DNA of 64,000 bases from Marivibrio halodurans (GTDB taxonomy: Bacteria; Pseudomonadota; Alphaproteobacteria; UBA8366; Aestuariispiraceae): NCBI RefSeq assembly GCF_017963645.1, contig NZ_JAGMWN010000002.1, forward strand, positions 310,001 through 374,000, written 5' to 3'. Of the stretch, positions 1,172 to 19,284 are shown in pieces. Below the pieces are notes generated by a model. The model was given only the letters and a program-made list of their open reading frames with translations. It was not told the DNA's origin and ran no database searches. Positions within the stretch are counted from its first letter, which is position 1. Every line of letters begins with the position of its first letter. The translations under genes were made by a program, and so were the position numbers.

Positions 1172-1702
1172 GTGAAAGCCGTTCGCCCCGCGCCCATCGG
1201 TGCGGGGCGGCGGTTCGGAAATGGAGATCCCGTTATTTCCGCGCCCTCTCTCAAGTCGGCCTATCTGGGCGAACTGCGCGTGGTGTTCGCGCGCTCGCAC
1301 ATCATCGGCGACACACCCGCCGGCGCGCGCCGGGTCGATTGCTTCGAGAGCGGTCACTTCCAGGGCCCCCGGTTGAACGCTCGTGTCCTGCCCGGGACCA
1401 GCGATTGGCTCCTCGGGGGGCGGGATGGGGTTCACCGGCCCGATGTCCGGGTCTGCCTGGAGACCGATGGGGGGGAGCGTCTGCTCATGTCCTATCGCGG
1501 CGTGCGGCGCGGCACGCCCGAGGCGATGGAACGCTTCGCCCGCGCGTTGCCGGTCGATCCGGAGAGCTACTATCTGCGAAGCCTGATCCTGTTCGAGGCG
1601 GCGACGAGCGGTCCGCATGCCTGGTTGAACGACCTAGTGGCCGTCGGCATCGGCCGGCGCGAACCCGAGGCGACCTGTTACGATGTCTTCGAAATCCTGT
1701 AG
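1172..1702 (+). CDS. DUF3237 family protein
   Basis: A 176-residue protein whose residues from about 25 on fit the DUF3237 family: a TPAGARRVDCFESGHFQGPR block, then the LPGTSDW motif, an acidic DVR strand and a GxxYRG strand, ending in an evenly spaced ECYDVFEI-like tail. DUF3237 proteins are small beta-barrel-like proteins of unknown function, often near transport and catabolic genes. The only start without shortening the domain is GTG at 1172, 10 bases after the permease stop, and no clear Shine-Dalgarno sequence is seen, so it may be read by coupling. Its 3' end overlaps the next gene by 20 bases. It has no signal peptide. Confidence 0.8.
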   Translation: MKAVRPAPIGAGRRFGNGDPVISAPSLKSAYLGELRVVFARSHIIGDTPAGARRVDCFESGHFQGPRLNARVLPGTSDWLLGGRDGVHRPDVRVCLETDGGERLLMSYRGVRRGTPEAMERFARALPVDPESYYLRSLILFEAATSGPHAWLNDLVAVGIGRREPEATCYDVFEIL

Positions 1703-2720
1703 CGACACGGCCCCTTCCGGCCCCTTCGCGCGCGGGCTGTCCTTCTTGGAGCCGGCCAACGCGATCTTTCCCGGCCTCGCCGTCGCCGGCATCGTCGGCC
1801 TCGCCGCGGCGTTCCTGACGGATCATTACGGCGGGCCGATCATGGTCTTCGTGCTGTTGCTCGGGATGACCCTCAATCCCGTCGCGTCCAGCCCGCGCTT
1901 CGTTCCCGGGATCACGCTGGCAACGACCCGGGTCCTGCGGATCGGCGTCGCCCTGCTGGGCGCGCGGATCACGCTCGATCAGATCCTGTCGCTCGGCCTT
2001 GCGCCGATCGCGGTGGTCGTCGTCGGCGTGGTCGCGACCGTGTTGTTCGGCGTGGCGATGGGGCGGGTCTTCGGCCTTGGCAGCCGCTTCGGCGTGTTGA
2101 CCGGCTGCGCCGTCGCGATCTGCGGGGCCTCGGCCGCGCTGGCGATCGCGGCGGTCCTGCCCAAGGGGTCGAACGACGAGCGCGACACGATCTTCACCGT
2201 GATAGGGGTGACGACGCTCAGCACGGTCGCGATGGTGCTCTATCCGTTCGTTACCGTGATGCTGGACTATGACGACCATATGGCGGGCATATTCCTGGGC
2301 GGGACGATTCATGATGTCGCGCAGGTCGTCGGCGCGGGATACAGCCTCTCCGACACGGCCGGCGACGTCGCGACCTATACCAAGCTGCTGCGCGTCGCGA
2401 TGTTGTTGCCGGTGGCCCTGGTGGTCGCCCTGGTCTTCCATCGCGGTGGGGCGGAGGGGACGAAGGCGCGCCCGCCGTTCTTCCTGTTCGCCTTCTTCGC
2501 GCTGATCGGGCTCAACAGCGCCGGGCTGATCCCGGCGGAGGTCGCCTCGCTCCTGGAGACCGCCTCGAAGCTCTGCCTGATCGTCGCGATCGCCGCCCTG
2601 GGGATCAAGACGTCCCTCATGGGCCTCGTGCGCGTGGGTGGGCCCGCGATTGTTCTCATCGTCCTGGAAACCCTGATGATCGCCGGGATCGTCATCGGAT
2701 TGCTCACCGTGCTGGGGTGA
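1683..2720 (+). CDS. YeiH/UPF0324 family putative sulfate exporter (TauZ/SuyZ-like)
   Basis: A 345-residue integral membrane protein with about ten hydrophobic segments. The block around residues 50-110 (LGMTLNP, RVLRIGVALLGARITLDQI) and the GCAVAICGASAALAIAAVLP stretch are diagnostic for the UPF0324/PF03601 family. Members of this family encoded beside sulfonate desulfonation genes in Paracoccus were named TauZ and SuyZ and proposed to export sulfate. Their transport activity is weakly proven. It overlaps the DUF3237 gene by 20 bases and is followed by a second exporter-type gene, so all three probably share a transcript with the TRAP permease. Confidence 0.85.
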   Translation: MSSKSCSDTAPSGPFARGLSFLEPANAIFPGLAVAGIVGLAAAFLTDHYGGPIMVFVLLLGMTLNPVASSPRFVPGITLATTRVLRIGVALLGARITLDQILSLGLAPIAVVVVGVVATVLFGVAMGRVFGLGSRFGVLTGCAVAICGASAALAIAAVLPKGSNDERDTIFTVIGVTTLSTVAMVLYPFVTVMLDYDDHMAGIFLGGTIHDVAQVVGAGYSLSDTAGDVATYTKLLRVAMLLPVALVVALVFHRGGAEGTKARPPFFLFAFFALIGLNSAGLIPAEVASLLETASKLCLIVAIAALGIKTSLMGLVRVGGPAIVLIVLETLMIAGIVIGLLTVLG

Positions 2721-5767: not shown

Positions 5768-6487
5768 TCAGAACACCAGGCTTTGATAGCGTTCCAGGCA
5801 GGCGCGGGCCGTTCTTATTATCTCGCGCTTGCAGCGCTCGGCCTCCTCCGGCTCGCGCGCGGCCATGTGCCGCAGCATACGGTGATGCATGCCGCAGCCC
5901 TCCTTCGCGCGGCCCGGCAGCAAGGTGACACGCCGGGCGACCACGCGCGCCTTGTCCAGTACGAGGTCGAGGAAATGCGTGATATGGGCGCTGTCCGCCC
6001 AATGCAGCGTGCGCTCGCGTACCGCGTCCAGCACTTCCAGATAGCGTTCGATGTCGCCGGCCTCGATCGTCTCCTCCATCGCGGGGCCGAGCGCCTCGAT
6101 CAGGTCGTCCCAGGCGCCGTCCGGGGCGTTCACGGTCGCCAGTCGGACGGCGAGGCCTTCGAGCACCTCGCGCACATCGAAGATCTCGTAGACTTCCTTG
6201 GCGTCCAGCCGGGCGACCACGGCGCCCCGGTTGGGGATGCGCTCGATCAATCCCCGCTGCTCCAGGATGCCCAGCACCTCGCGCACGCGGGCGCGGGAAA
6301 TCCCGAATTCGGTCGCGATCAGGACTTCCTGGATCCGCTGACCGGGTTGCAGGTCGTGTCGCGAGATACGGGCGCGCAGGATATCCGTCACCTGCTCCGC
6401 CGTCGCGCCGTCGCCGCGCTTACGCTCCGCGGGGCCGTCGGATCGATCTTGGGTACCCGGCGGCACCTTGTCTGCGGCCGTCTTCAT
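5768..6487 (-). CDS. GntR family transcriptional regulator, FCD subfamily
   Basis: A 239-residue regulator with an N-terminal GntR winged helix (about residues 30-95, with the ILQ-like SRARVREVLGILEQRGLIE core) and a C-terminal all-helical FCD effector domain (about 105-225) that in the family binds a metal and an organic acid. The start is taken as ATG at 6487, nine bases after AAGGAA. It is divergent from the thiamine-diphosphate enzyme gene, with a 14-bp perfect palindrome between them, so it most likely controls both that gene and its own run. FCD regulators usually act as repressors released by a pathway substrate. Confidence 0.92.
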   Translation of the reverse strand: MKTAADKVPPGTQDRSDGPAERKRGDGATAEQVTDILRARISRHDLQPGQRIQEVLIATEFGISRARVREVLGILEQRGLIERIPNRGAVVARLDAKEVYEIFDVREVLEGLAVRLATVNAPDGAWDDLIEALGPAMEETIEAGDIERYLEVLDAVRERTLHWADSAHITHFLDLVLDKARVVARRVTLLPGRAKEGCGMHHRMLRHMAAREPEEAERCKREIIRTARACLERYQSLVF

Positions 6488-6578
6488 CAATCGCGCTTCC
6501 TTTCCGGGGTCCGTCCCGTCCCCTTCGGATATCCCCTAGATACCCCGTGGAGCGGGCCACATCAAAGCCCCGACATAA

Positions 6579-6722: not shown

Positions 6723-8417
6723 ATGAGCAGGATGACGGGCGGTCAGGCCGCCGTCGCGGCCCTTCGGAACGAGACGGTTTCCCATGTCTTCGGATTGATC
6801 GGGTCGGCGACGATGGAGATGTTCGACGCGCTCTATGACAGCCGCGACATCCGCATGATCGGCGTGCGGGACGAACGCACCGGCACGCACATGGCCGACG
6901 GCTACGCCCGGGCGAGCGGCCGTCCCGGCGTCATCCTGGCGGGCCAGAACGGACCCGGCGCCACCAACCTCGTCACCGGCTTGGCGCAGGCGAAGGCCGC
7001 CTATTCGCCCGTGGTGTCCATCGCCGGCGCCTTGGCGACGGGCCATATCTATCGCGACGCCTTCCAGGAGGTGGATCAGCAATCCCTCTTCATGCCCATC
7101 ACCAAGAAGACCTGGAGCGTGCCGAGCACGGATCGCGTGCAGGAGATCATGCGCGAGGCGTTTCGCACCGCCATGAGTCCGCGCCGCGGGCCGGTGCATG
7201 TCAATCTGGCGCGCGACGTGCTGGCCGGGCAGGCGGATTTCGATCCGCAACCGGAGCCCGGCAGCTATCGCGTTCAAATGGTACCCGCCGCCCCGGCGGA
7301 GGCGGCGGACAAGGCCGCGGCCCTGCTCCTCAATGCCGAGCGGCCGGTGATCGTGACCGGCGGCGGGGTGAAGTATAATGGCCGTTCGGACGCGGTGCTG
7401 GCGTTGGCCGAGCGGTTGAATTGTCCCGTCGCGACCTCGCCCGGCCATGGCGACGCCATCCCCTTCGGCCATCCGCTGAATGCGGGTCAGATGGGGCCGC
7501 GCGGCAATCCGGTGGCCTCGCGGCTGGTGAAGGAGGCCGATGTGATCCTGGCCCTCGGCACGCGGCTGGGCTTCAATTCGACCTTCTATTCCTACGATAA
7601 CATCAACCGGGATGCCGCGATCATCCATGTGGAGATGGAGCCGACCGCCATCGGCCGCTATTTCCCGATCGCCCAAGGGATCTGGGGCGACGCGGCCACG
7701 GTCGCCGAGCAGATCGCCGACCGGCTGGAGAACGCCGAACGCAAGGCGGCGGCCGAGGCGTGGCTCGCCCGGTTCAAGGAGGAGCGCGCCGCTCACCTCG
7801 CCCGGCGCGACGCCGATGCCGTGATGGGAGAGCCGATGCAGCCTTCCGGCGTCTTCAAGACCTTGCGCGACGTGCTGCCGAAGGACGCGGCGGTGACCAT
7901 GGATGCGGGCACGTTATGCCTTCAGGCGACGGACGCGCTGAATTATTGGGAGAGCCCCAGCCTCTTCACGCCGCTGGATTTCGGCCTTGTCGGCTTCTCC
8001 TTCGCCTGTGGCCTGGGGGTGAAGCTCGCGCGGCCCGACCGGCCCGTCGTGAGCCTCATGGGCGACGGCGGTTTCGGCATGACGCTGACGGAGCTGAGCA
8101 CCGCCGTGCAGCATGATATCCGGACCGTCACCGTGGTCATGAATAATGGCTGCTGGGGCGCGGAGAAGGCCTATCAGCGCGATTTCTTCGGCGAACGCTA
8201 TATCGGCGCGGACATCCACAACCCGCCCTTCGACAAGGTGGCGGAACTCTACGGCGCGGCCGGCTTCCGGGTGGAGCGGCTCGATGAGCTCGGTGATGCG
8301 GTAAAGGCGGCGCTCGCCTGCGGCAAGCCGGCGGTCGTCGACGTCCAGGTCGATCCCAGCGCGCTTTACAGCTTCCGCCGCGATTCCTTCGCCCATCGCG
8401 CCGGAAAGGCGTCCTGA
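6723..8417 (+). CDS. Thiamine-diphosphate enzyme of the sulfoacetaldehyde acetyltransferase (Xsc)-like group
   Basis: A 564-residue enzyme with the three domains of the acetolactate-synthase superfamily. Glu51 (RDERTG) is the cofactor-activating glutamate, QNGPGATN follows, and the C-terminal domain has the GDG...NN diphosphate motif at 447-475. Motifs right after it, WGAEK at 478-482 with a following QRDFF, and FRRDSF at 551-556, resemble those I recall from Xsc, which splits sulfoacetaldehyde with phosphate into sulfite and acetyl phosphate. They differ from acetolactate synthase (typically NNxxLGMV). AAAAGGAG at 6705-6712 fits ATG 6723 or GTG 6717. No pta gene is beside it, so the assignment stays tentative. 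A carboligase or decarboxylase of another 2-oxo acid is the alternative. Confidence 0.8.
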   Translation: MSRMTGGQAAVAALRNETVSHVFGLIGSATMEMFDALYDSRDIRMIGVRDERTGTHMADGYARASGRPGVILAGQNGPGATNLVTGLAQAKAAYSPVVSIAGALATGHIYRDAFQEVDQQSLFMPITKKTWSVPSTDRVQEIMREAFRTAMSPRRGPVHVNLARDVLAGQADFDPQPEPGSYRVQMVPAAPAEAADKAAALLLNAERPVIVTGGGVKYNGRSDAVLALAERLNCPVATSPGHGDAIPFGHPLNAGQMGPRGNPVASRLVKEADVILALGTRLGFNSTFYSYDNINRDAAIIHVEMEPTAIGRYFPIAQGIWGDAATVAEQIADRLENAERKAAAEAWLARFKEERAAHLARRDADAVMGEPMQPSGVFKTLRDVLPKDAAVTMDAGTLCLQATDALNYWESPSLFTPLDFGLVGFSFACGLGVKLARPDRPVVSLMGDGGFGMTLTELSTAVQHDIRTVTVVMNNGCWGAEKAYQRDFFGERYIGADIHNPPFDKVAELYGAAGFRVERLDELGDAVKAALACGKPAVVDVQVDPSALYSFRRDSFAHRAGKAS

Positions 8418-8424
8418 GCCAGCC

Positions 8425-10053
8425 ATGACGGAAATCCATGATTATATCGTCGTCGGTGCCGGTTCCGCCGGGGCTGCCCTTGCCGCCCGCCTGAGCGAAT
8501 GCGGCCGCTATCGTGTGCTGTTGCTGGAAGCGGGCGGGCCGGACCGGAATCCGTGGATCCATATCCCGCTCGGTGTCGGCAAATTGCTGACGAACGCCCG
8601 TTATGTCTGGCCCTATGAATCGGAGCCGCAGGCGCATCTGGCGGGTCAGCGCATCTATTCTCCGCGCGGCAAGGTCCTGGGCGGGTCGAGCGCGGTGAAC
8701 GGCATGGCCTATCTCTGGGGCGATCCGGCGGAATATGATTCCTGGGCCGAAGATGGGGTGACCGGCTGGGGACATGATGACGTCCTGCCCTATTTCCAGC
8801 GCATGGAAAGCAACGCCTTCGCCGACGACCCACGGCGTGGCCGAACCGGGCCGGTGCGCATCACCGACCTGAAGCAACGCGATCCGGACATCCTTTCGGA
8901 AGCCTTCATCGGCGGCTGCAAGGAAGCCGGGATCGCGGAGACGCCGGACTACAACGTCGTCAGCTATGAAGGCGTCCGCTATCTGGAGCAGACCGCCGCC
9001 GACGGGCGGCGTTGGTCGACCGCGCGGGCCTATCTGCGCGCGGCCGCGAAGCGTCCGAATCTCCGGATCGTGACCCATGCGCGGGCGACATCCATCCTGT
9101 TCGAGGGGCGGCGCGCGGTGGGCGTCGCCTATGAGCGGAACGGCACCGCGTTCGAGGCCCGCGCGCGGGGCGAGGTGTTGGTTTCGGCCGGGACGATCAT
9201 GTCGCCCCATCTGCTCGAACTCTCCGGTATCGGGGCGGGGGAGCGACTGCGCGGGTTCGATATCCCCGTCACCGTCGACAACCCGGCGGTGGGCGAGAAT
9301 ATGAGCGATCATCTTCAGGTGCGCCGAACCTACGAGACCCGGGCCGCGCGCACGATCAACGATATCGTCTGCAATCCCGCGGTCAGGACCTTAGAGGCCA
9401 TTCGCTATCTGTTGACCCGCAAGGGGATGTTCGCCGGTACTTCCTCGACCGCGCATGCGATCACGCGCGCCGACCCGGACGTGACGCGGGCGGACACGAT
9501 GATCCGGCTTTACCAGATCAGCGGAAAGGACCGTTATTCACGCAGCAAGCTGGGAGGCATCGATAGTTTCTCCGGCTTCTCGGTCGGCGGGTTCAAGCTG
9601 CTGCCGAAATCGCGGGGTCATGTGCATATCGCCTCGCCGGACCCGTCGGCGCTTCCCCGGATCGAGCCGAACTACTTCGCCGATCCGGCGGACGCGGTGA
9701 CCGCCGTCAATATCCTGAAGCTGATCGGCCGGGTTGCGGCCCAGCCGTCCTTCCGCCAGGTGATCGTCCAGGAACATCAACCGGACCTGTCGGAGGAGAC
9801 CGACGAGGCGCTGCTGGACTATGCCAAGCGCACCGGTCAGACGGCTTGGCACACGGTCGGAACCTGCCGGTTCGGCCCGGCCGGTGTCGGGGTCGTGGGT
9901 TCCGATCTGCGCGTCCATGGCACGGAGGGGCTGCGGGTGATCGATGCCTCCGTCTTTCCGACGATCCCTTCCTCCAACACGAACGCCCCGGCGATCATGG
10001 TCGGCGAACGCGGGGCGGATCTGGTGCTGGCCGACGCGCGGAGAGCCTCATGA
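8425..10053 (+). CDS. GMC family flavoprotein oxidoreductase (alcohol/choline dehydrogenase type)
   Basis: A 542-residue FAD enzyme of the glucose-methanol-choline family: dinucleotide motif GAGSAG at residues 11-16, the GGSSAVNGMAYLWG signature near 90-103, and a C-terminal active-site block with His476 and Asn518-Asn520 ahead of AIMVGERGADL. These enzymes oxidise primary alcohols to aldehydes and pass electrons to quinone or cytochrome, or to oxygen. The gene starts 7 bases after the TPP-enzyme stop and overlaps the next gene by ATGA, so the three are one operon. A GMC dehydrogenase supplying an aldehyde to an Xsc-like enzyme parallels the isethionate route (IseJ), which is inference. Confidence 0.92.
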   Translation: MTEIHDYIVVGAGSAGAALAARLSECGRYRVLLLEAGGPDRNPWIHIPLGVGKLLTNARYVWPYESEPQAHLAGQRIYSPRGKVLGGSSAVNGMAYLWGDPAEYDSWAEDGVTGWGHDDVLPYFQRMESNAFADDPRRGRTGPVRITDLKQRDPDILSEAFIGGCKEAGIAETPDYNVVSYEGVRYLEQTAADGRRWSTARAYLRAAAKRPNLRIVTHARATSILFEGRRAVGVAYERNGTAFEARARGEVLVSAGTIMSPHLLELSGIGAGERLRGFDIPVTVDNPAVGENMSDHLQVRRTYETRAARTINDIVCNPAVRTLEAIRYLLTRKGMFAGTSSTAHAITRADPDVTRADTMIRLYQISGKDRYSRSKLGGIDSFSGFSVGGFKLLPKSRGHVHIASPDPSALPRIEPNYFADPADAVTAVNILKLIGRVAAQPSFRQVIVQEHQPDLSEETDEALLDYAKRTGQTAWHTVGTCRFGPAGVGVVGSDLRVHGTEGLRVIDASVFPTIPSSNTNAPAIMVGERGADLVLADARRAS

Positions 10054-10499: not shown

Positions 10500-11909
<1,410 letters not shown>

Positions 11910-12976: not shown

Positions 12977-13489
12977 TTGTCCCAGGATACGGAAATTCTC
13001 GCTCTCTATACCGCCCATCGCAGCGCACTCGTGGAGTATGCGAGCGGGATCACGGGCAACCGCGCCCATGCGGAAGATCTGGTGCAGGAGGCATGGGTGC
13101 GCATGGACCGGGCGGCGCGCAAGGAGCCGCCGAAGGAACCGCTTCGCTATCTTTATCGGATCGTGCGCAACCTTGCCTTCGACGGTCGGCGGAGCCTGGC
13201 GCGCGAACGTCAGGTGATCAGCGGCGAGGATGTCGCGGGCGCGGCCGCGCGGGGGGCGTCGCCGGACCCATCGCCGGAGGCGGTGGCACTTTACAAGGCG
13301 GAATTCGAGCGTCTGGTCGCGGCCATGGACGAATTGCCGGAGAGAACGCGGATCGCGCTCGAAATGCACCGGATCGGCGGGTGCAAGTTGCGGGAGATCG
13401 CGGCCTTCCTGGACATCTCCCTGCCGATGGCGCATGTGCTTGTCGCGCAAGGGGTTGAGCATTGCAAGCGCCGGCTCGGCTGGTCGTAG
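12977..13489 (+). CDS. ECF sigma factor, FecI-like
   Basis: A 170-residue group IV sigma factor: region 2 at about residues 10-75 (LYTAHRSALVEYASGITG, then AEDLVQEAW) and region 4 at about 110-165, the latter with the family's EMHRIGGCKLREIAAFL helix-turn-helix. The FecI type directs transcription of a siderophore receptor when a signal comes through FecR. The start is taken as TTG at 12977 because no in-frame ATG or GTG lies between the Fur box and the domain; this makes the start less certain. FecR and a TonB receptor follow on the same strand. Confidence 0.9.
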   Translation: MSQDTEILALYTAHRSALVEYASGITGNRAHAEDLVQEAWVRMDRAARKEPPKEPLRYLYRIVRNLAFDGRRSLARERQVISGEDVAGAAARGASPDPSPEAVALYKAEFERLVAAMDELPERTRIALEMHRIGGCKLREIAAFLDISLPMAHVLVAQGVEHCKRRLGWS

Positions 13490-13662
13490 GCGATAAAGCG
13501 GGGCACGTTCCGCATGCTGCCCGGCACCCCGCCGGTTCCTCAACGGGGCGGGGCGGACTAGAAAAATCGCGCGCCGCAACGTCTGATGGGTAGGGTGACG
13601 GCAATCGCGGGGCGCGCGGTGCCCGTCGGTTCGTCCGAACGCGGGAATGACGAGGGAAGGGC

Positions 13663-14691
13663 ATGTCGGATAGCGCCGGTCAAACCCGGGACAAGGCATC
13701 GAGGGAGGCCACGGACTGGTTGATCCTGTTGCAGGACGATCCCGAGGATCGCGCGCTTCGTGATCGGTTCGAACAATGGTTGAACGCCGATTCCTTGAAT
13801 CGCGCGGCCTGGGACGCGACCGCGCGCGCCGCACAAATGATGGCGGTCGCGCCCGCCGTCCATGCAGCCCGATGGCGGCCGGCCGTGGTGACGCCGTCCC
13901 GGCCCCGCTATGCGCGAACGGTGCGCGCGGCAAGCCGCTTCCGTTCCGGGGCGCGCTCGCGTTTGCATCGTCGGATCGCGGCCGCGACGGGTGCGGTGGC
14001 CGTCGCGGTTTGCCTCGTGCTGCTGGCCGCGCCCGATATCCCCATGCGGATGCGCGCCGACATCGTTACCGCGACGGCGGAGGTGCGGTCGGTCGCGCTG
14101 GAGGACGGCACCACCGTCACCCTCGGTCCCGAAAGCGCGATTTCCGTACGCTATGACCCGGACGGCCGGCAGGTCGACCTGCTGGCGGGGGAGGCCTATT
14201 TCGATGTCGTTTCCGATCCCGGCCGGCCCTTCCGCGTGGCGGCTGGAACGGTCCGCGCGCGTGTTCTCGGCACGCGGTTCGATGTCTGGCGGGGCGAAGA
14301 GGGGACCGCCGTCTCGGTCGCGGAGGGGAGGGTCCGGGTCGAGAATCCGGCCGCCGCGCCGCCCGTCTCCGTCATCCTGACGAAGGGGCGGGCCGCGCGG
14401 TTGGATGGCCGGGGGGCGGTGCGGCGGTTCGCGGTCGCACCGGATCAGGTCGCGTCCTGGCGGGACGGACGCCTGATCGCGCAGGACGAGCCGGTGGAGG
14501 ATGTGATCGACCGGCTGCGCCCCTATCACGACGGCGTCATCCTCGTCGCGGGATCGGCCTTGGCGGATCGGACCGTCACCGGCGTCTACAATCTGGACGA
14601 CCCGATGTCGGCGCTCTCCGGCATTGCCCGGGCGCACGGGGCGGCCGTCCGGCGGATCACGCCCTGGATCGTGCTGGTTTCGGGGTTCTGA
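13663..14691 (+). CDS. FecR family anti-sigma/sensor protein
   Basis: A 342-residue single-pass inner-membrane protein. The N-terminal cytoplasmic part is the DUF4880 sigma-binding domain (ATDWLILLQDD to about residue 60), a transmembrane segment lies near 105-125, and the periplasmic FecR domain follows (SVALEDGTTVTLGPESAISVRY), ending in an STN-like region that would contact the receptor. ATG 13663 has AGGGAAGGG just ahead. It lies 173 bases after the sigma gene and 207 before the receptor start, the classic order for surface signalling. Confidence 0.92.
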   Translation: MSDSAGQTRDKASREATDWLILLQDDPEDRALRDRFEQWLNADSLNRAAWDATARAAQMMAVAPAVHAARWRPAVVTPSRPRYARTVRAASRFRSGARSRLHRRIAAATGAVAVAVCLVLLAAPDIPMRMRADIVTATAEVRSVALEDGTTVTLGPESAISVRYDPDGRQVDLLAGEAYFDVVSDPGRPFRVAAGTVRARVLGTRFDVWRGEEGTAVSVAEGRVRVENPAAAPPVSVILTKGRAARLDGRGAVRRFAVAPDQVASWRDGRLIAQDEPVEDVIDRLRPYHDGVILVAGSALADRTVTGVYNLDDPMSALSGIARAHGAAVRRITPWIVLVSGF

Positions 14692-14898
14692 GGACCGTTC
14701 TATCCGCCACCCATGCACGTTTCCCTCCATGTTCCGGTCATGGGCGGAGGCATATGGCACGGACGGACCTATTTTTTATTAGAAAAGCTGTTCCACCCGT
14801 CGTCGGTCCTTGTGAGGGGGCGGAAATGAGACGCATTCGCAATATTCGCGGATGCGATCCCTCGCCCGGCTTTGGGATGCATGAAACGGAGGGGAACG

Positions 14899-17406
14899 AT
14901 GGCGGATAAGGTGGATCGGCGCATGGAAGCCGGCCGGGCAAGGGGGGCGCTCGCGCTCGCGGCGGCTCTGGCGGGAACTGTGGCGACCGGATTGGCAAGC
15001 ACCACATGGGCGGAAACACCGGGCTCCCGGTCCGGGACGTTTGTCCAGGGCGTCGGCGTCCCCGCCCCGATCTCCTTCGAGCCGGGGGCGCAACTCGCCC
15101 AGGCCGAGGGCGAAAACGTGACTTTCGATATCCCCGCCCAGCCGCTGACCAGCGCGCTGGCCGCGTTCGGTCGGCAGTCCGGTCTGCAGGTGACGGTAGA
15201 TGGCGCGATCGCGCGCGGTCACGACGCGCCGGACGTCCATGGCAGCATGACGGCGGAAGAGGCGTTGCGTCGCCTGATCGCCGGCAGCGGTCTTACCTAC
15301 CAGCGCGACGGCGGGACGATCGCCCTGCGCCGGCGCGTGGGCGAGAATGGTACCATGCAGCTCGACCCCATCACGGTTGAGGGGCAGGGACATGCGCTCG
15401 ACCCCGGGCGCACGGAGGATACGGGCTCCTATGCCGGGTCCCAGGTTTCCGTCGGCTCCAAGATGCCGATGTCGATCCGGGAAATCCCGCAATCGGTCAG
15501 CGTGGTCACCCGTCAGCGCATGGAGGACGAGGACCTCGTTTCGCTGCAGGACGCGATGGAGCGCACGACCGGCGTTCGCGTGCAATATTGGGATGACGAT
15601 CGGGCGAGTTTCAGCGCGCGCGGTCATGACGCGTCGCTTCTGCGTGACGGCGTTCCGGTAACGCATATGACGAACTTCACGGCGGCGCCCGATCTCGTCG
15701 CCTATGACCGCATCGAGGTTCTGCGCGGCCCGGCGGGTCTGTTCCACGGCGCGGGCGAGGCCGGGGGATCGATCAATCTGGTGCGCAAGCGCGCGCTGGA
15801 GGATGCCCGCATCAAGGGGTCGGCCCAGGCCGGGTCCTGGAACAACTATCGCGGCGAGGTCGATGTGACCGGCGCCTTGGTGGAGTCCGGCCGTCTGCGC
15901 GGGCGTCTCGCCGGTTCCTATCAGGACAAGGAATCCTTCATCGACATCTACGACCAACAGGAATCGGTGATCTACGGCACGGTGGAAGGTGACCTGACCC
16001 CCGCCACCACGCTTTCCGTCGGCGGGATCTATTTCGAGCAGGACAAGCACCAGTTCCAGGGCATTCCGATCGCCTATACGACGGGCGAAATGGTCGAGTT
16101 GCCCCGGCATTCGAACCTCGGCCATGACTGGAGCCGCGGCAACGAGTCGGCGAGCGATCTTTTCGTGGAGGTGGAGCACGGTTTCGACAACGGGGTGGAC
16201 CTGACGCTTTCCGGGCGCCATGTCGAACGCGATCGCGACGGCTTCGTGAGCTACGTCACCTCGGGTATCGATCGCGCGACGGGAACCGTCAGTTCCCAGG
16301 CCTGGGAATTCATCGCCGGAAGCGAGGATACCTCGTTCGACGCGAATATCGCGGCGCCGACGCGTTTCTTCGGCCAGCAGCAGGAATTCCTGGTCGGCGC
16401 GGACTACACGCTCGCCGATCACCGTTCGCAATGGGGCAGCAGCGCGGCCTTCAGGACCGACGCCTTCGCACCGGATCATCATTTCCCGCTTTCCACCATC
16501 CGGGGCTTCAGCTCCGATTGGGAGGAGGATACGGAGCAGATCGGTGCCTATGGTCAAGCGAACATCAAGCCCGGCCTGGACTGGTTGACGTTGGTCGCGG
16601 GCGGGCGCTTCACCTGGTGGGACTATGTCAACACGAACAATGCCGCCGGCACGACGACGTCCGACGTGACGGTCAGCGGCGAATTCACGCCGAAGCTGGG
16701 GGTGGTCGCGGATGTGACGGAGGAGCTTTCGACCTATGCCTCCTATGCGGCGATCTTCGAGCCGCAGACGAACCTCGACCCTTCCGGCGAGGTGATCGAC
16801 CCGCGCGAGGGCGAGCAGTTCGAGGTCGGCGTCAAGGGCGAGTTCATGGACGGCCGGTTGCTTGCCCATCTGGCCGCCTATCAGATCGAGGACAAGAACC
16901 GCGCGACCCAGATCGACGGTTGCGTCGGCCCGCTCTGCGCCGAGGCGGCCGGGCTGGTCCGCAGCCGGGGTGTCGAGATGGAGGTTAGCGGATCTCCGGC
17001 CCCCGGATGGCAGGCCATGGCGGGCTATGCCTACACCTACGCCACCTATGTCGATGATCCGACCAACCAGGGGGAGGTCTTCGCCTCCTATATCCCGAAG
17101 CATATGGTCAACCTTTCCGCGACCTACAGCTTCGAGGGCGGCGCCCTGGACGGACTCAGCCTCGGCGGCGGCGGCCGGTTCATGAGTTCCTATTTCGATG
17201 TCTCGGGCGGCAATCGCTATACCCAGGATGCCTATGCGTTGTTCGATGCCCGCGTCGGCTATGACCTGACCAAGGAAGTTTCAGCCCAGTTCGCGGTCAA
17301 GAACCTCCTGGACGAGGAATATTTCGAACGTCTGGGCGGGGTGAGCCGGAACAATTACTGGGGCACGCCGCGCAGCTACATGCTGACCCTTCGCGGGGAA
17401 TGGTAA
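14899..17406 (+). CDS. TonB-dependent siderophore receptor with signalling domain
   Basis: An 835-residue outer-membrane receptor. After a signal peptide (hydrophobic stretch ALALAAALAGTVATGLA, cleavage after TWA) comes an STN signalling domain at about 70-145 (FDIPAQPLTSALAAFGRQSG), then a TonB-box-like stretch (LDPITVEG), the plug domain (REIPQSVSVVTRQRMED) and the 22-strand barrel ending in an aromatic-poor ...LTLRGEW. The plug resembles FhuE/FpvA-type hydroxamate or catecholate receptors, but the ligand cannot be read. ATG 14899 is chosen over 14881 because GGAGGGG lies five bases upstream. The STN domain pairs it with the FecR-sigma genes upstream. Confidence 0.94.
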   Translation: MADKVDRRMEAGRARGALALAAALAGTVATGLASTTWAETPGSRSGTFVQGVGVPAPISFEPGAQLAQAEGENVTFDIPAQPLTSALAAFGRQSGLQVTVDGAIARGHDAPDVHGSMTAEEALRRLIAGSGLTYQRDGGTIALRRRVGENGTMQLDPITVEGQGHALDPGRTEDTGSYAGSQVSVGSKMPMSIREIPQSVSVVTRQRMEDEDLVSLQDAMERTTGVRVQYWDDDRASFSARGHDASLLRDGVPVTHMTNFTAAPDLVAYDRIEVLRGPAGLFHGAGEAGGSINLVRKRALEDARIKGSAQAGSWNNYRGEVDVTGALVESGRLRGRLAGSYQDKESFIDIYDQQESVIYGTVEGDLTPATTLSVGGIYFEQDKHQFQGIPIAYTTGEMVELPRHSNLGHDWSRGNESASDLFVEVEHGFDNGVDLTLSGRHVERDRDGFVSYVTSGIDRATGTVSSQAWEFIAGSEDTSFDANIAAPTRFFGQQQEFLVGADYTLADHRSQWGSSAAFRTDAFAPDHHFPLSTIRGFSSDWEEDTEQIGAYGQANIKPGLDWLTLVAGGRFTWWDYVNTNNAAGTTTSDVTVSGEFTPKLGVVADVTEELSTYASYAAIFEPQTNLDPSGEVIDPREGEQFEVGVKGEFMDGRLLAHLAAYQIEDKNRATQIDGCVGPLCAEAAGLVRSRGVEMEVSGSPAPGWQAMAGYAYTYATYVDDPTNQGEVFASYIPKHMVNLSATYSFEGGALDGLSLGGGGRFMSSYFDVSGGNRYTQDAYALFDARVGYDLTKEVSAQFAVKNLLDEEYFERLGGVSRNNYWGTPRSYMLTLRGEW

Positions 17407-17416
17407 GGAACGCCGG

Positions 17417-17704
17417 ATGCCGGATAGAACCAGGGGGCTTTCGGTCCTCTCACGGGTGGCGGCCGCGGCGCTCGGCGGCTATGCCTGCGCCGCGGCGGTC
17501 TCGGTATGGGTCTCCCATATCGTGCCCGCGCCGCGCGTGGAGGGGGTGACGACCGGCCTCCTGATCGGCTTCGCGGTGTTCGTGGGCGCGGTGGTGTGGG
17601 TCTTCGCCGCCACCACCGCGCGCCGCGCCTGGGCGGGGGTGCTCTCCGTCACCGTGCTTTTCGCCGTGATGGCGTGGGTCGCCGGACCGGTGCCCGCGCC
17701 ATGA
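17417..17704 (+). CDS. DUF3649 family small membrane protein
   Basis: A 95-residue protein with three hydrophobic segments (about 12-32, 45-66, 72-90). Proteins of this size and layout beside PepSY and DUF3325 genes fall in DUF3649, found in siderophore uptake groups. It begins 10 bases after the receptor stop and overlaps the PepSY gene by ATGA. The role is unknown. A part in the inner-membrane step of iron release is inferred from context. Confidence 0.75.
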   Translation: MPDRTRGLSVLSRVAAAALGGYACAAAVSVWVSHIVPAPRVEGVTTGLLIGFAVFVGAVVWVFAATTARRAWAGVLSVTVLFAVMAWVAGPVPAP

Positions 17705-19284
17705 AGACCGGATTCCGTCAGTCCATGGTCGGGGTCCACACATGGGCCGGGTTGGTTGTCGGCTGGGTGTTGTTCCTCGTCTTCCTGACCGGGACCGCCG
17801 GCTATTTCGATGCGGAAATCGACCGTTGGATGCAGCCCGAGCGGCCGCTCCAACGCGAGACGGTCTCGGCGGAGCGGGCGGTCGAGGAGGCCTCCGCGCG
17901 TCTGAGCCGCGCCGCGCCCGGCGCGGAGCGTTGGTTCATCGGATTGCCCGGGCCGCGCGATCCGGACATGACGCTGTTCTGGCGTGCCGATCCGTCCGCG
18001 GGTGGCGGCACCGGGCGCGTGGAGATCGACCCCACGACGGGCGCGCCGGTCGCGGCCCGCGAAACCGGGGGTGGGCAGTTCCTCTACAAGCTGCATTACC
18101 GCCTGCACTACATGCCGGCGGTGCCGGCCTATTGGATCGTCGGCCTGTGCAGCATGCTGATGCTGATCGCCATTATCACCGGCATCATCATCCACAAGCG
18201 GATATTCAAGGACTTCTTCACCTTTCGTCCGGGGAAGGGACAGCGCTCCTGGCTCGACGCGCATAATGTCCTGAGCGTTCTGGCACTGCCCTTCCACCTC
18301 ATGATCACCTATTCGGGATTGATCTTCTTCGCCTATCTCTACATGGCCCCGGTGATCGCCGCGACCTACGGCATGGGGGAGGAGGCGCGGGACGTCTATT
18401 TCGACGAGCGCTTCGAGCGCGATTCGATCCCGGCGCGCACCGGTATCCCGGCCGATCTGACCCCCCTAGCCCCCCTCGTCCGGGAGGCGGAGCGGCGGTT
18501 GGGGGACGGGATGCTCGGCTATCTCAATATCCACAATCCGGGCGACGCCAATGCCCGGGTCGTCATCGTGGGCGGGCCGGCCACGCCGTCCCGGCAAAGA
18601 ACCGGGCTGACCTTCGACGGGGTCGACGGCACGCTCCTCACGGTTTCCGCGCCCGATTCCGCGCCGATGACGACCTATCAGACATTGCTCGGCCTGCATG
18701 AGGGGCTGTTCGCGGGCCCGATCCTGCGATGGTTCTATTTCCTTTCCGGCGCGCTGGGAACCGCGATGGTCGGGGCGGGGCTGATCCTGTGGACGGTGAA
18801 ACGCCGCGCGCGGATTGGCGGGACGCCGGGATTCCGACTGGTGGAGCGGTTGAATATCGGAACGATCGCCGGCCTGCCGGTCGCCATTGCCGCCTATTTC
18901 TGGGCCAACCGGCTGATCCCGGTGGGGATCGGGGCACGCGCGGCCTGGGAGGCCCATGTGCTCTTCATCGTCTGGGCGGCGATGCTGCTGCATGCCTTCC
19001 TTCGGCCCGCGCGGCGGGGGTGGCGGGAGCAGCTCTGGCTCGCCGCGGCCGCGTTCGGTCTGTTGCCGGCGCTCAATGCCGTCACCACCGACCGGCATCT
19101 CGGTGTCACCTTGCCGGCCGGCGCGTGGGATCTGGCGGGCGTCGATCTCGTGACGCTGGTCCTCGGGCTTGCCTTCGCGGGTGTCGCCTGGCGGCTTGGG
19201 CGCCGCGCGCGACATGAGGTTCGTGCCGGGGGACGGCGGGCTGAATCCGGCTTGCGGGCACGCGGCTCGGAGGCGGCGGAATGA
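17701..19284 (+). CDS. PepSY-domain transmembrane protein, ferrisiderophore reductase-like
   Basis: A 527-residue inner-membrane protein of the PepSY-associated TM family. It has an N-terminal helix with HTWAGLVVGW (conserved His in the first segment), a HYRLHYMP stretch with His residues, LDAHNVLSVLALPFHLMITYSG, and C-terminal helices. The paired histidines in membrane segments suit heme b or metal binding. The Pseudomonas relative FpvG reduces iron from ferripyoverdine in the periplasm, so reductive iron release is the likely task. It overlaps both neighbours by ATGA, so the three membrane genes are translated together after the receptor. Confidence 0.85.
   Translation: MKTGFRQSMVGVHTWAGLVVGWVLFLVFLTGTAGYFDAEIDRWMQPERPLQRETVSAERAVEEASARLSRAAPGAERWFIGLPGPRDPDMTLFWRADPSAGGGTGRVEIDPTTGAPVAARETGGGQFLYKLHYRLHYMPAVPAYWIVGLCSMLMLIAIITGIIIHKRIFKDFFTFRPGKGQRSWLDAHNVLSVLALPFHLMITYSGLIFFAYLYMAPVIAATYGMGEEARDVYFDERFERDSIPARTGIPADLTPLAPLVREAERRLGDGMLGYLNIHNPGDANARVVIVGGPATPSRQRTGLTFDGVDGTLLTVSAPDSAPMTTYQTLLGLHEGLFAGPILRWFYFLSGALGTAMVGAGLILWTVKRRARIGGTPGFRLVERLNIGTIAGLPVAIAAYFWANRLIPVGIGARAAWEAHVLFIVWAAMLLHAFLRPARRGWREQLWLAAAAFGLLPALNAVTTDRHLGVTLPAGAWDLAGVDLVTLVLGLAFAGVAWRLGRRARHEVRAGGRRAESGLRARGSEAAE

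What the first reader, a model, noticed from the sequence alone, without database searches (positions are those of the whole stretch)
6723..8417. Xsc-like enzyme with changed motifs
The C-terminal WGAEK...QRDFF and FRRD motifs resemble Xsc, but the NN (instead of the HN I recall for Xsc) after the GDG motif and some N-terminal residues (RDERTG) differ. It could be a sister group of Xsc with another 2-oxo or aldehyde substrate.
Basis: partly seen in the sequence, partly recalled or inferred. Interest (0 to 1): 0.5.

Follow-up and report, generated by a model that had tools for sequence, protein, structure and literature searches.

The report
Sister enzyme family of Xsc
A bacterial gene encodes an uncharacterised vitamin-B1-dependent enzyme that is related to, but clearly not, the sulfonate-splitting enzyme Xsc; close relatives sit in gene clusters that resemble those for breaking down ring-shaped plant and plankton osmolytes, so it probably processes an aldehyde from such compounds.

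Summary
The ORF at 6723-8417 is real: 564 aa, all three ThDP-enzyme domains. It is not Xsc by NCBI's cut-offs (420 and 433 bits against 676 and 620). The same genome has two genuine Xsc. It belongs to a tight family, 'XscL' (87 rows, 85 distinct; median identity 75%), which with an MttB-linked subfamily forms a clade apart from 21 genuine Xsc.

XscL keeps a set of Xsc residues (E51, Q115, E481-K482, Q75-N76, S28, R552, D554) in every row. Eleven other positions (among them D50, K128, R260, N262, D404, Y484) differ uniformly from all 21 Xsc. 'NN instead of HN' is unimportant: the Xsc compared read RN.

Of 80 relatives, 63 lie within 7 kb of an LLM monooxygenase and/or DUF1185 gene, in operons like trigonelline-type ring-cleavage clusters. 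The window and three others carry XscL-GMC-CMD instead. Best reading: Xsc-type chemistry on a different, perhaps carboxylated, aldehyde. The substrate is unproven; a sulfonate role for the window copy is a serious rival. A 2026 homarine paper that might already describe this operon was not readable here.

The parts
6723..8417 (+). xscL: ThDP-dependent enzyme, 564 aa, sister family of sulfoacetaldehyde acetyltransferase
8425..10053 (+). GMC oxidoreductase (choline-dehydrogenase-like), 7 bases after the xscL stop; 63-67% identical to the GMC gene following xscL in L059, L062, L085; 42% to the GMC gene before a genuine Xsc in the same genome
10050..10481 (+). carboxymuconolactone-decarboxylase-family (CMD) protein overlapping the GMC stop; 59-83% relatives near xscL in 31 of 80 loci
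5768..6490 (-). GntR/FCD regulator divergent from xscL; 44-48% relatives in L059, L062, L085
4895..5731 (-). metallo-beta-lactamase-fold hydrolase, weakly like lactonases (AidB/AiiA/AttM models, far below cut-off); 33-35% relatives after XscL-GMC-CMD in L059 and L062, a 60% relative in L034; none detected in L085
1..1161 (+). TRAP transporter large subunit (DctM; gene starts upstream of the window), membership uncertain; 31-32% DctM relatives follow XscL-GMC-CMD in L059 and L062, a 53% relative lies near a genuine Xsc of the same genome (L120)
1683..2720 (+). YeiH-family putative sulfate exporter (membership of the xscL regulon uncertain); 49% to the YeiH after a genuine Xsc in the same genome, 48% to one in L085
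2766..3539 (+). TauE/SafE-family exporter (membership uncertain)
10500..11822 (-). class III aminotransferase, convergent (membership uncertain)

Best explanation
XscL is a ThDP-dependent aldehyde-processing enzyme that keeps the chemistry of Xsc but not its substrate. The cofactor, activated by E51, adds to an aldehyde; with the Xsc-type Glu (E481), Gln (Q115) and the Q75-N76 loop it eliminates or rearranges a group next to the carbonyl, protonates the resulting carbanion/enol and passes the acyl group to phosphate or water. The aldehyde is produced upstream by different routes: in most relatives by ring cleavage and hydrolysis of an N-methylated pyridine betaine (trigonelline/homarine type), in the window by oxidation of an alcohol by the GMC dehydrogenase (perhaps after TRAP uptake and lactone opening). 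The CMD protein that accompanies XscL in both contexts suggests a beta-formyl acid and therefore a carboxylated aldehyde, with R260/N262 as candidate ligands. Shown: family, conserved residues, operons, co-occurrence, and a predicted fold. Inferred: chemistry class. Guessed: substrate, product and the roles of R260/N262.
For: Clade apart from Xsc with support 1.0. Window protein 30-37% identical to 21 Xsc, while XscL pairwise identity has median 75%, minimum 59.5%; six of 80 record titles name Acidimicrobiales and eight name Gammaproteobacteria, so one conserved function is likely. The Xsc residue pair Q125/E510 (Table 1 of PMC13327070) corresponds, by my alignment and motif reading, to Q115/E481: in all XscL rows and 21 of 21 Xsc; the three own ALS-like paralogues have V or I at the Glu position. 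Operon (within 7 kb, of 80 loci): alpha/beta hydrolase 68, LLM 57, ALDH 48, LysR 46, DUF1185 44, CMD 30, ABM 22, flavin reductase 20; LLM or DUF1185 in 63 of 80 and 45 of 52 with 6 kb on both sides; LLM, ALDH and hydrolase together in 42 of 80 and 36 of 52. LLM, ALDH, hydrolase, DUF1185 and flavin reductase relatives lie together on A. fabrum pAt and S. meliloti pSymA; S. meliloti lacking pSymA does not grow on trigonelline (PMC4207669, passage). An LLM homologue (62-71%) is in 5 of 8 XscL-positive genomes and in 0 of 60 class genomes without XscL. CMD accompanies XscL in both operon types.
Against: No XscL has been assayed. The window genome has no LLM at E 1e-60, so its copy works in another pathway. 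The CMD and NIPSNAP proteins of A. fabrum gave no match to the CMD and ABM proteins of the XscL operons at E 1e-4, so those two are alike in name only. No Pta or acetate kinase was recognised among the recurrent neighbour families that I labelled (not all were). Pta over the cut-off is in only 3 of 8 XscL-positive genomes, but it is also missing in the window genome, which has two genuine Xsc, so that test is inconclusive. Trigonelline breakdown as known ends in succinate semialdehyde (recalled), which has no obvious leaving group for Xsc-type elimination. The window's GMC, YeiH and DctM have relatives (42, 49, 53%) near a genuine Xsc of the same genome, which hints at sulfonates.
Confidence: 0.47

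Rival explanations
1. XscL is a sulfonate enzyme after all: a divergent Xsc that splits sulfoacetaldehyde or a close sulfo-aldehyde, in the window as the last step of an isethionate-like route (TRAP, GMC dehydrogenase, ThDP enzyme, YeiH/TauE exporter).
For: A genuine Xsc of the same genome (contig C5, L120) lies between a GMC gene (42% to the window GMC) and a YeiH gene (49% to the window YeiH), with a DctM gene (53% to the window DctM) about 4 kb away. YeiH is also near XscL in L085 and L059. 8 of 8 XscL-positive genomes also have a genuine Xsc, against 6 of 60 XscL-negative class genomes. IseJ-Xsc with the TRAP transporter IseKLM is the known isethionate route (PMC6453916, passages). The conserved Xsc residues tested are kept.
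Against: Presence of genuine Xsc in the same genome argues against redundancy. Uniform differences at R260, N262, D404, Y484, K128, D50. Most relatives sit in ring-cleavage operons, and YeiH relatives were found in only 2 of the 80 loci. In the window, DctM, YeiH and TauE lie beyond an opposite-strand block and may belong to another operon.
Confidence: 0.25
2. XscL is a ThDP carboligase or 2-oxo-acid decarboxylase (acetolactate-synthase-like chemistry) recruited to a catabolic operon.
For: Closest solved folds in the lists are BbmA and acetolactate synthases. The C2-alpha-protonating Glu also occurs in pyruvate decarboxylases and in actinobacterial 2-hydroxyacyl-CoA lyase, the latter with the same Glu/Gln pair (PMC13327070).
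Against: Profile scores favour Xsc over the listed ALS models. The synthases and the oxidase in the 'without protonation' part of that table have a hydrophobic residue where XscL has E481. Upstream genes look like makers of aldehydes.
Confidence: 0.2
3. XscL acts on aldehydes with a nitrogen, oxygen or phosphonate leaving group (X-CH2-CHO to acetyl phosphate plus X), e.g. amine or phosphonate analogues of sulfoacetaldehyde.
For: Relatives at 44-51% identity lie with N-demethylation or amine-oxidation genes: MttB-like, class III aminotransferase and two GcvT-type FAD oxidoreductases in Ruegeria; MttB-like plus an OYE/FadH-type flavoprotein in L108.
Against: That subfamily differs at S28 and N76 and reads L-R-K-D, so it may have another substrate; no direct evidence.
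Confidence: 0.08

Closest known systems
Sulfoacetaldehyde acetyltransferase (Xsc; TIGR03457, NF005713)
   Same: ThDP domains, full-length profile match, S28, Q75-N76, Q115, Q119, R164, H242, W478-x-x-E481-K482, F551/R552/D554
   Different: below both NCBIfam cut-offs; 30-37% identity; D50, R52, K128, Q256, P259, R260, N262, D404, N474, Y484, Q485 uniform in XscL and different in 21 of 21 Xsc; other operons; coexists with Xsc
Acetolactate synthase / BbmA (nearest solved folds listed)
   Same: overall fold (TM-score 0.80-0.86 by query length, listed rows)
   Different: the three own ALS-like paralogues lack E481-K482 and the QN pair; identities 25-31% in the listed fold matches
Trigonelline-type ring-cleavage cluster (TgnA/B-like LLM monooxygenase and reductase, ALDH, hydrolase; A. 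fabrum pAt, S. meliloti pSymA)
   Same: the LLM-type XscL operon has related LLM, ALDH, hydrolase, DUF1185 and (in 20 of 80 loci) flavin reductase genes
   Different: no XscL in the 15 kb viewed on pAt and pSymA, and no rhizobial or Agrobacterium record among the 32 plasmid matches to XscL; LLM only 36-45% identical; the flavin reductases there are longer; CMD and NIPSNAP not detectably related
Isethionate operon (IseJ dehydrogenase, Xsc, TRAP IseKLM)
   Same: the window has a ThDP enzyme, a GMC enzyme and TRAP genes
   Different: XscL in place of Xsc, an added CMD protein, GMC only 42% to the one beside the own Xsc; that IseJ is a GMC enzyme is recalled

Membership tests
Sulfoacetaldehyde acetyltransferase (Xsc) | NCBIfam equivalog cut-off TIGR03457 (676 bits) or subfamily NF005713 (620 bits) | tested here: not met
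   420 and 433 bits; the two genuine Xsc of the genome score 928-933 on TIGR03457
Sulfoacetaldehyde acetyltransferase (Xsc) | falls inside the Xsc clade | tested here: not met
   21 Xsc monophyletic with support 1.0, XscL outside
Sulfoacetaldehyde acetyltransferase (Xsc) | catalytic Glu/Gln pair (E510/Q125 of Q84H41) | tested here: met
   E481 and Q115 in all 87 rows, 85 distinct; correspondence by alignment and motif; pair from PMC13327070
Sulfoacetaldehyde acetyltransferase (Xsc) | sulfonate-contact residues | not testable with these tools
   no Xsc structure in the lists seen
Sulfoacetaldehyde acetyltransferase (Xsc) | converts sulfoacetaldehyde and phosphate to acetyl phosphate and sulfite | not testable with these tools
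   needs an assay
Acetolactate synthase | meets an acetolactate synthase NCBIfam cut-off | tested here: not met
   TIGR00118 385.5 bits against 538; the other ALS models among the 25 listed of 54 are also below their cut-offs
Isethionate pathway (window locus) | GMC-type dehydrogenase, TRAP genes and genuine Xsc together | tested here: not met
   GMC and TRAP genes present, but the ThDP enzyme is XscL
Trigonelline-type ring-cleavage pathway (LLM-type relatives) | LLM monooxygenase with ALDH, hydrolase and flavin reductase near XscL | tested here: met
   LLM, ALDH and hydrolase together in 42 of 80 loci (36 of 52 with full flanks); with flavin reductase too in only 18 (16)
Trigonelline-type ring-cleavage pathway (window genome) | LLM monooxygenase in the genome | tested here: not met
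   no LLM at E 1e-60 in G000

The most novel reading that the evidence does not exclude
XscL is an undescribed ThDP enzyme activity: the step that turns the aldehyde left after ring cleavage of N-methyl-pyridine betaines (trigonelline/homarine type) into an acyl phosphate or acid by Xsc-type chemistry. It would be widespread in Rhodobacterales, SAR116, Gammaproteobacteria and Acidimicrobiales, with the GMC route of the window feeding the same intermediate from an alcohol or lactone.
Probability: 0.3. Interest if true: 0.75.

Novelty: new variant of a known kind. Interest (0 to 1): 0.5.

Why it matters
Xsc is taken as a sign of sulfonate breakdown (recalled). Relatives such as XscL can be called Xsc by similarity: a published R. 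pomeroyi re-annotation names SPOA0309 'Sulphoacetaldehyde acetyltransferase' (PMC4334477, passages), and this is probably the megaplasmid relative found here (mapping guessed from position and gene order, not shown). Separating XscL from Xsc would correct sulfur-cycle inferences. If XscL serves pyridine-betaine breakdown, it gives a testable new step in the turnover of abundant marine osmolytes and a second substrate class for Xsc-type chemistry.

Tried and rejected
'NN versus HN' as a functional marker: rejected, the Xsc compared have RN.

Plain acetolactate synthase: rejected by profile and tree. Orthologous Xsc: rejected by cut-off, clade and coexistence with genuine Xsc.

Phosphotransacetylase co-occurrence as a test of an acetyl-phosphate product: inconclusive (over the cut-off in 3 of 8 XscL-positive, 0 of 3 MttB-type, 4 of 45 other genomes, and not in the window genome with its two Xsc).

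Structure: AlphaFold2 model, mean pLDDT 88.1. Fold search agrees with a ThDP enzyme, but coordinates and cofactor were not available and the catalytic site lies between subunits (recalled), so whether the uniform differences line the pocket was not tested.

GMC-type XscL as one lineage: not supported. The common ancestor of the four spans all 87 rows (support within XscL low, 0.45), so the arrangement was shared or gained more than once.

Neighbour clusters on the antisense strand (e.g. clusters 2, 7, 8, 9, 11) were dropped as probable shadow frames; this was judged by overlap and low scores, not tested. Several other clusters (e.g. 24, 25, 28, 32, 42) were not identified. Of the 52 loci with full flanks, six have neither LLM nor DUF1185 by tblastn: L022, L044, L062, L073, L082, L085. 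I looked at some flanking genes of L022, L044 and L082: phosphotransferase-aminotransferase fusion, MFS and solute-binding proteins, LUD/Fe-S proteins, an AAA protein, PALP and HAD enzymes, peptidase, hydantoinase; no common theme. L111 (XscL with an alpha/beta hydrolase, a zinc alcohol dehydrogenase and DctM) is a further context.

I therefore raised the sulfonate rival from 0.20 to 0.25 and lowered the main reading from 0.50 to 0.47 and the carboligase rival from 0.22 to 0.20. I also found that two of the 87 XscL rows repeat others (L098 = L024, L099 = L017).

Papers: the homarine pathway paper (Nat Microbiol 2026, 10.1038/s41564-026-02313-7) and the trigonelline pathway paper (PNAS 2018, 10.1073/pnas.1722368115) are not held; their contents are recalled only, apart from mentions in PMC8269262 and PMC13390433. 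The search for Xsc-like or Xsc paralogue papers listed two titles, neither on this enzyme to judge by title. Paper searches gave capped listings; no described XscL was seen in the listings or in the passages that I opened.
Full report
Observation. Window 6723-8417 (+) is one open frame of 564 aa with all three ThDP-enzyme domains. NCBIfam ranks the two Xsc models first, at 433 and 420 bits, but their cut-offs are 620 and 676; the acetolactate synthase models among the 25 listed of 54 score lower. The window lies at C15:310001-374000 of a 4.18 Mb genome, which also has two Xsc above the cut-off (933 and 928 bits). Its remembered 'HN' of Xsc is not borne out: the genuine Xsc compared read RN in 21 of 21.

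Family. A scan of GTDB genomes found 579 pattern matches, 556 of which encode a relative; the best 80 were kept, at 69-76% identity. These 80, the window and six rows from whole genomes make the 87 XscL rows used below; two of the six repeat loci among the 80, so 85 are distinct. An ML tree of 118 sequences, rooted by me on three own ALS-like enzymes and one more ThDP enzyme (L085), puts XscL plus five relatives at 44-51% identity in a clade with support 1.0; 21 Xsc are monophyletic (1.0); both, with one haloarchaeal sequence, are separated from the four others (1.0). The grouping of all 87 XscL rows has only 0.45, and the window protein is a deep branch. Pairwise identity in XscL: median 75%, minimum 59.5%; window against Xsc 30-37%.

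Residues. The same in all XscL rows and in 21 of 21 Xsc: S28, E51, Q75, N76, Q115, Q119, R164, H242, R281, N475, W478, E481, K482, F551, R552, D554 (C399 and R553 in 85 of 87 rows). E481 and Q115 correspond, by my alignment and motif reading, to E510 and Q125 of Xsc in Table 1 of PMC13327070, where such a Glu protonates the C2-alpha carbanion; the oxidase and synthases listed there without that step have a hydrophobic residue. Uniform in XscL and different in all 21 Xsc: D50, R52, K128, Q256, P259, R260, N262, D404, N474, Y484, Q485. I infer Xsc-like chemistry with a changed substrate; that these positions line the pocket is not shown. A structural test of sulfonate contacts was impossible: no Xsc was named among the listed structure hits (60 of 151, 50 of 488 at E 0.001), and PMC13327070 says that Xsc has not been characterised beyond its stoichiometry. 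The AlphaFold2 model (pLDDT 88.1) has the expected fold.

Operons of relatives. Clustering of ORFs around the 80 loci shows a recurrent order: LysR (divergent), flavin reductase, aldehyde dehydrogenase, LLM-class monooxygenase, DUF1185, alpha/beta hydrolase, XscL, then CMD or an ABM-like protein. Counts within 7 kb: hydrolase 68 of 80, LLM 57, ALDH 48, LysR 46, DUF1185 44, CMD 30, ABM 22, flavin reductase 20; of 52 loci with 6 kb on both sides 47, 41, 39, 38, 34, 21, 17, 18. LLM or DUF1185: 63 of 80 and 45 of 52. LLM, ALDH and hydrolase together: 42 of 80 and 36 of 52; with DUF1185 and flavin reductase as well, 16 and 14. So the full set is a minority pattern; some genes may be elsewhere in the genome or missed. 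The names rest (one representative each) and on my reading; the ABM-like protein had no NCBIfam match.

What the operon resembles. Related LLM, ALDH, hydrolase, DUF1185 and flavin reductase genes lie together, without XscL in the stretches viewed, on A. fabrum pAt (next to proXWV) and S. meliloti pSymA. Identities to the XscL-operon representatives: LLM 36-45%, ALDH 44-56%, DUF1185 46-66%, hydrolase 27-35%, flavin reductase 32-35% over about 145 residues of a longer protein; CMD and NIPSNAP gave no match at E 1e-4. None of the 32 plasmid records matching XscL is from Rhizobium, Sinorhizobium or Agrobacterium (chromosomes not searched). S. meliloti lacking pSymA does not grow on trigonelline (PMC4207669, passage; another strain than the record viewed), and bacterial trigonelline breakdown opens the ring with the TgnA/TgnB oxygenase (PMC8269262, passages); PMC11354265 lists TgnB among luciferase-like enzymes (figure legend). 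In five loci the XscL operon is followed by genes that I read as glutamine-amidotransferase/glutamate-synthase-like and glutamine-synthetase-like (clusters 44-46 and 48); their link to methylamine assimilation is recalled, not tested. I therefore read the LLM-type operon as ring cleavage of an N-methylated pyridine betaine. Whether the substrate is trigonelline, homarine or another is open; PMC8269262 argues that TgnA/TgnB is unlikely to act on homarine. The homarine pathway paper of 2026 is not held and may already describe this operon.

Window-type operon. In the window, L059, L062 and L085, XscL is followed by a GMC oxidoreductase (63-67% identical to the window's) and CMD, with a GntR regulator near (44-48%). 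L062 continues with a metallo-beta-lactamase-fold protein, DctP and a DctM relative; L059 has the metallo-beta-lactamase-fold gene and a DctM relative at the same places. In L085 neither was detected with the window proteins as queries. In the window the lactamase-fold gene follows GntR on the other strand, and TRAP genes lie upstream. CMD thus accompanies XscL in both operon types (31 of 80 loci by tblastn). CMD enzymes decarboxylate beta-oxo-type acids (recalled), so the shared intermediate may be a beta-formyl acid or the aldehyde formed from it.

Sulfonate signals. The genuine Xsc on contig C5 (L120) lies between a GMC gene and a YeiH gene, 42% and 49% identical to the window's, and a DctM gene 53% identical to the window's lies about 4 kb away. 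YeiH is also near XscL in L085 and L059, i.e. in 2 of the 80 loci. The window DctM-DUF3237-YeiH-TauE genes lie beyond an opposite-strand block from xscL, so they may belong to another operon. A sulfonate role of the window copy is the main rival.

Distribution. Matches to the window protein: 10 of 385 class genomes at E 1e-150 (window genome included; seven at 69% or more, three at 48-51%), 1 of 43 in the order at E 1e-130, namely the window genome alone, 13 other genomes of its family included, and 2 of 398 in the phylum sample at E 1e-120, window genome included. XscL is thus an accessory gene here, probably acquired. Of the 8 XscL-positive genomes of these calls, 8 have a genuine Xsc, against 6 of 60 XscL-negative class genomes; 5 of 8 have the LLM at E 1e-60 against 0 of 60 (nominal Fisher p 4e-7 and 5e-6). 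The 60 were taken by handle number from the 375 class genomes without a match; nine low-numbered ones were left out (none of these nine has Xsc). Genomes are related and differ in size and lifestyle, so these are not clean probabilities. The three without LLM are the window genome and two genomes of one genus; the locus of one of these (L111) carries a DctM gene. In one positive genome (G303) the LLM is on another contig than XscL. The three MttB-type genomes all have a 53-55% LLM, and two of the three have Xsc.

MttB-type relatives. R. pomeroyi and Ruegeria sp. THAF33 have a 44-45% relative at the end of LysR / MttB-like / class III aminotransferase / two FAD oxidoreductases, with GcvT-like parts in R. 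pomeroyi. L108 has MttB-like / OYE-type flavoprotein / ThDP enzyme, and L107 and L109 have MttB-like plus ThDP. These look like demethylation and deamination of methylated amines to an aldehyde, which again places this ThDP clade after aldehyde formation. They differ from XscL at S28 and N76 and read LRKD.

Verdict. A real, coherent, apparently uncharacterised sister family of Xsc. It is not a member of Xsc by tested criteria, but likely works like it. Substrate unproven.

Noticed in passing
L116:14001-15680 (R. pomeroyi megaplasmid NC_006569.1): A 45% relative of XscL ends an operon with MttB-like, class III aminotransferase and two GcvT-type FAD oxidoreductase genes; a published re-annotation calls SPOA0309, probably this gene, sulphoacetaldehyde acetyltransferase.
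   Followed up: partly
L069:5742-6335 and relatives: DUF1185 ('amino acid synthesis family'; relatives solved as 2qtp and 3byq, named uncharacterised) recurs in the betaine-type clusters with and without XscL; its role there is unknown.
   Followed up: partly
L120:3680-11821 (G000 contig C5): DctM relative, GMC dehydrogenase, genuine Xsc and YeiH exporter near each other: an isethionate-like cluster in the same genome.
   Followed up: partly
window 12977-19284: By eye from the translations: FecI-like sigma factor, FecR-like protein, TonB-dependent receptor and a PepSY-type membrane protein, i.e. an iron-uptake signalling locus.
   Followed up: no
L111:3177-6722: Ribonucleotide reductase interrupted by an intein with a LAGLIDADG domain.
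   Followed up: no
L121 and L122: LLM-type clusters without XscL in the stretch viewed (LLM 59-61% to the XscL-operon LLM) lie beside genes that look like a carnitine operon (3-hydroxyacyl-CoA dehydrogenase-like, 3-keto-5-aminohexanoate cleavage protein, GlxA regulator).
   Followed up: no
L034:13884-14648: The closest relative (60%) of the window's metallo-beta-lactamase-fold protein lies about 2.2 kb downstream of XscL in an LLM-type locus.
   Followed up: no
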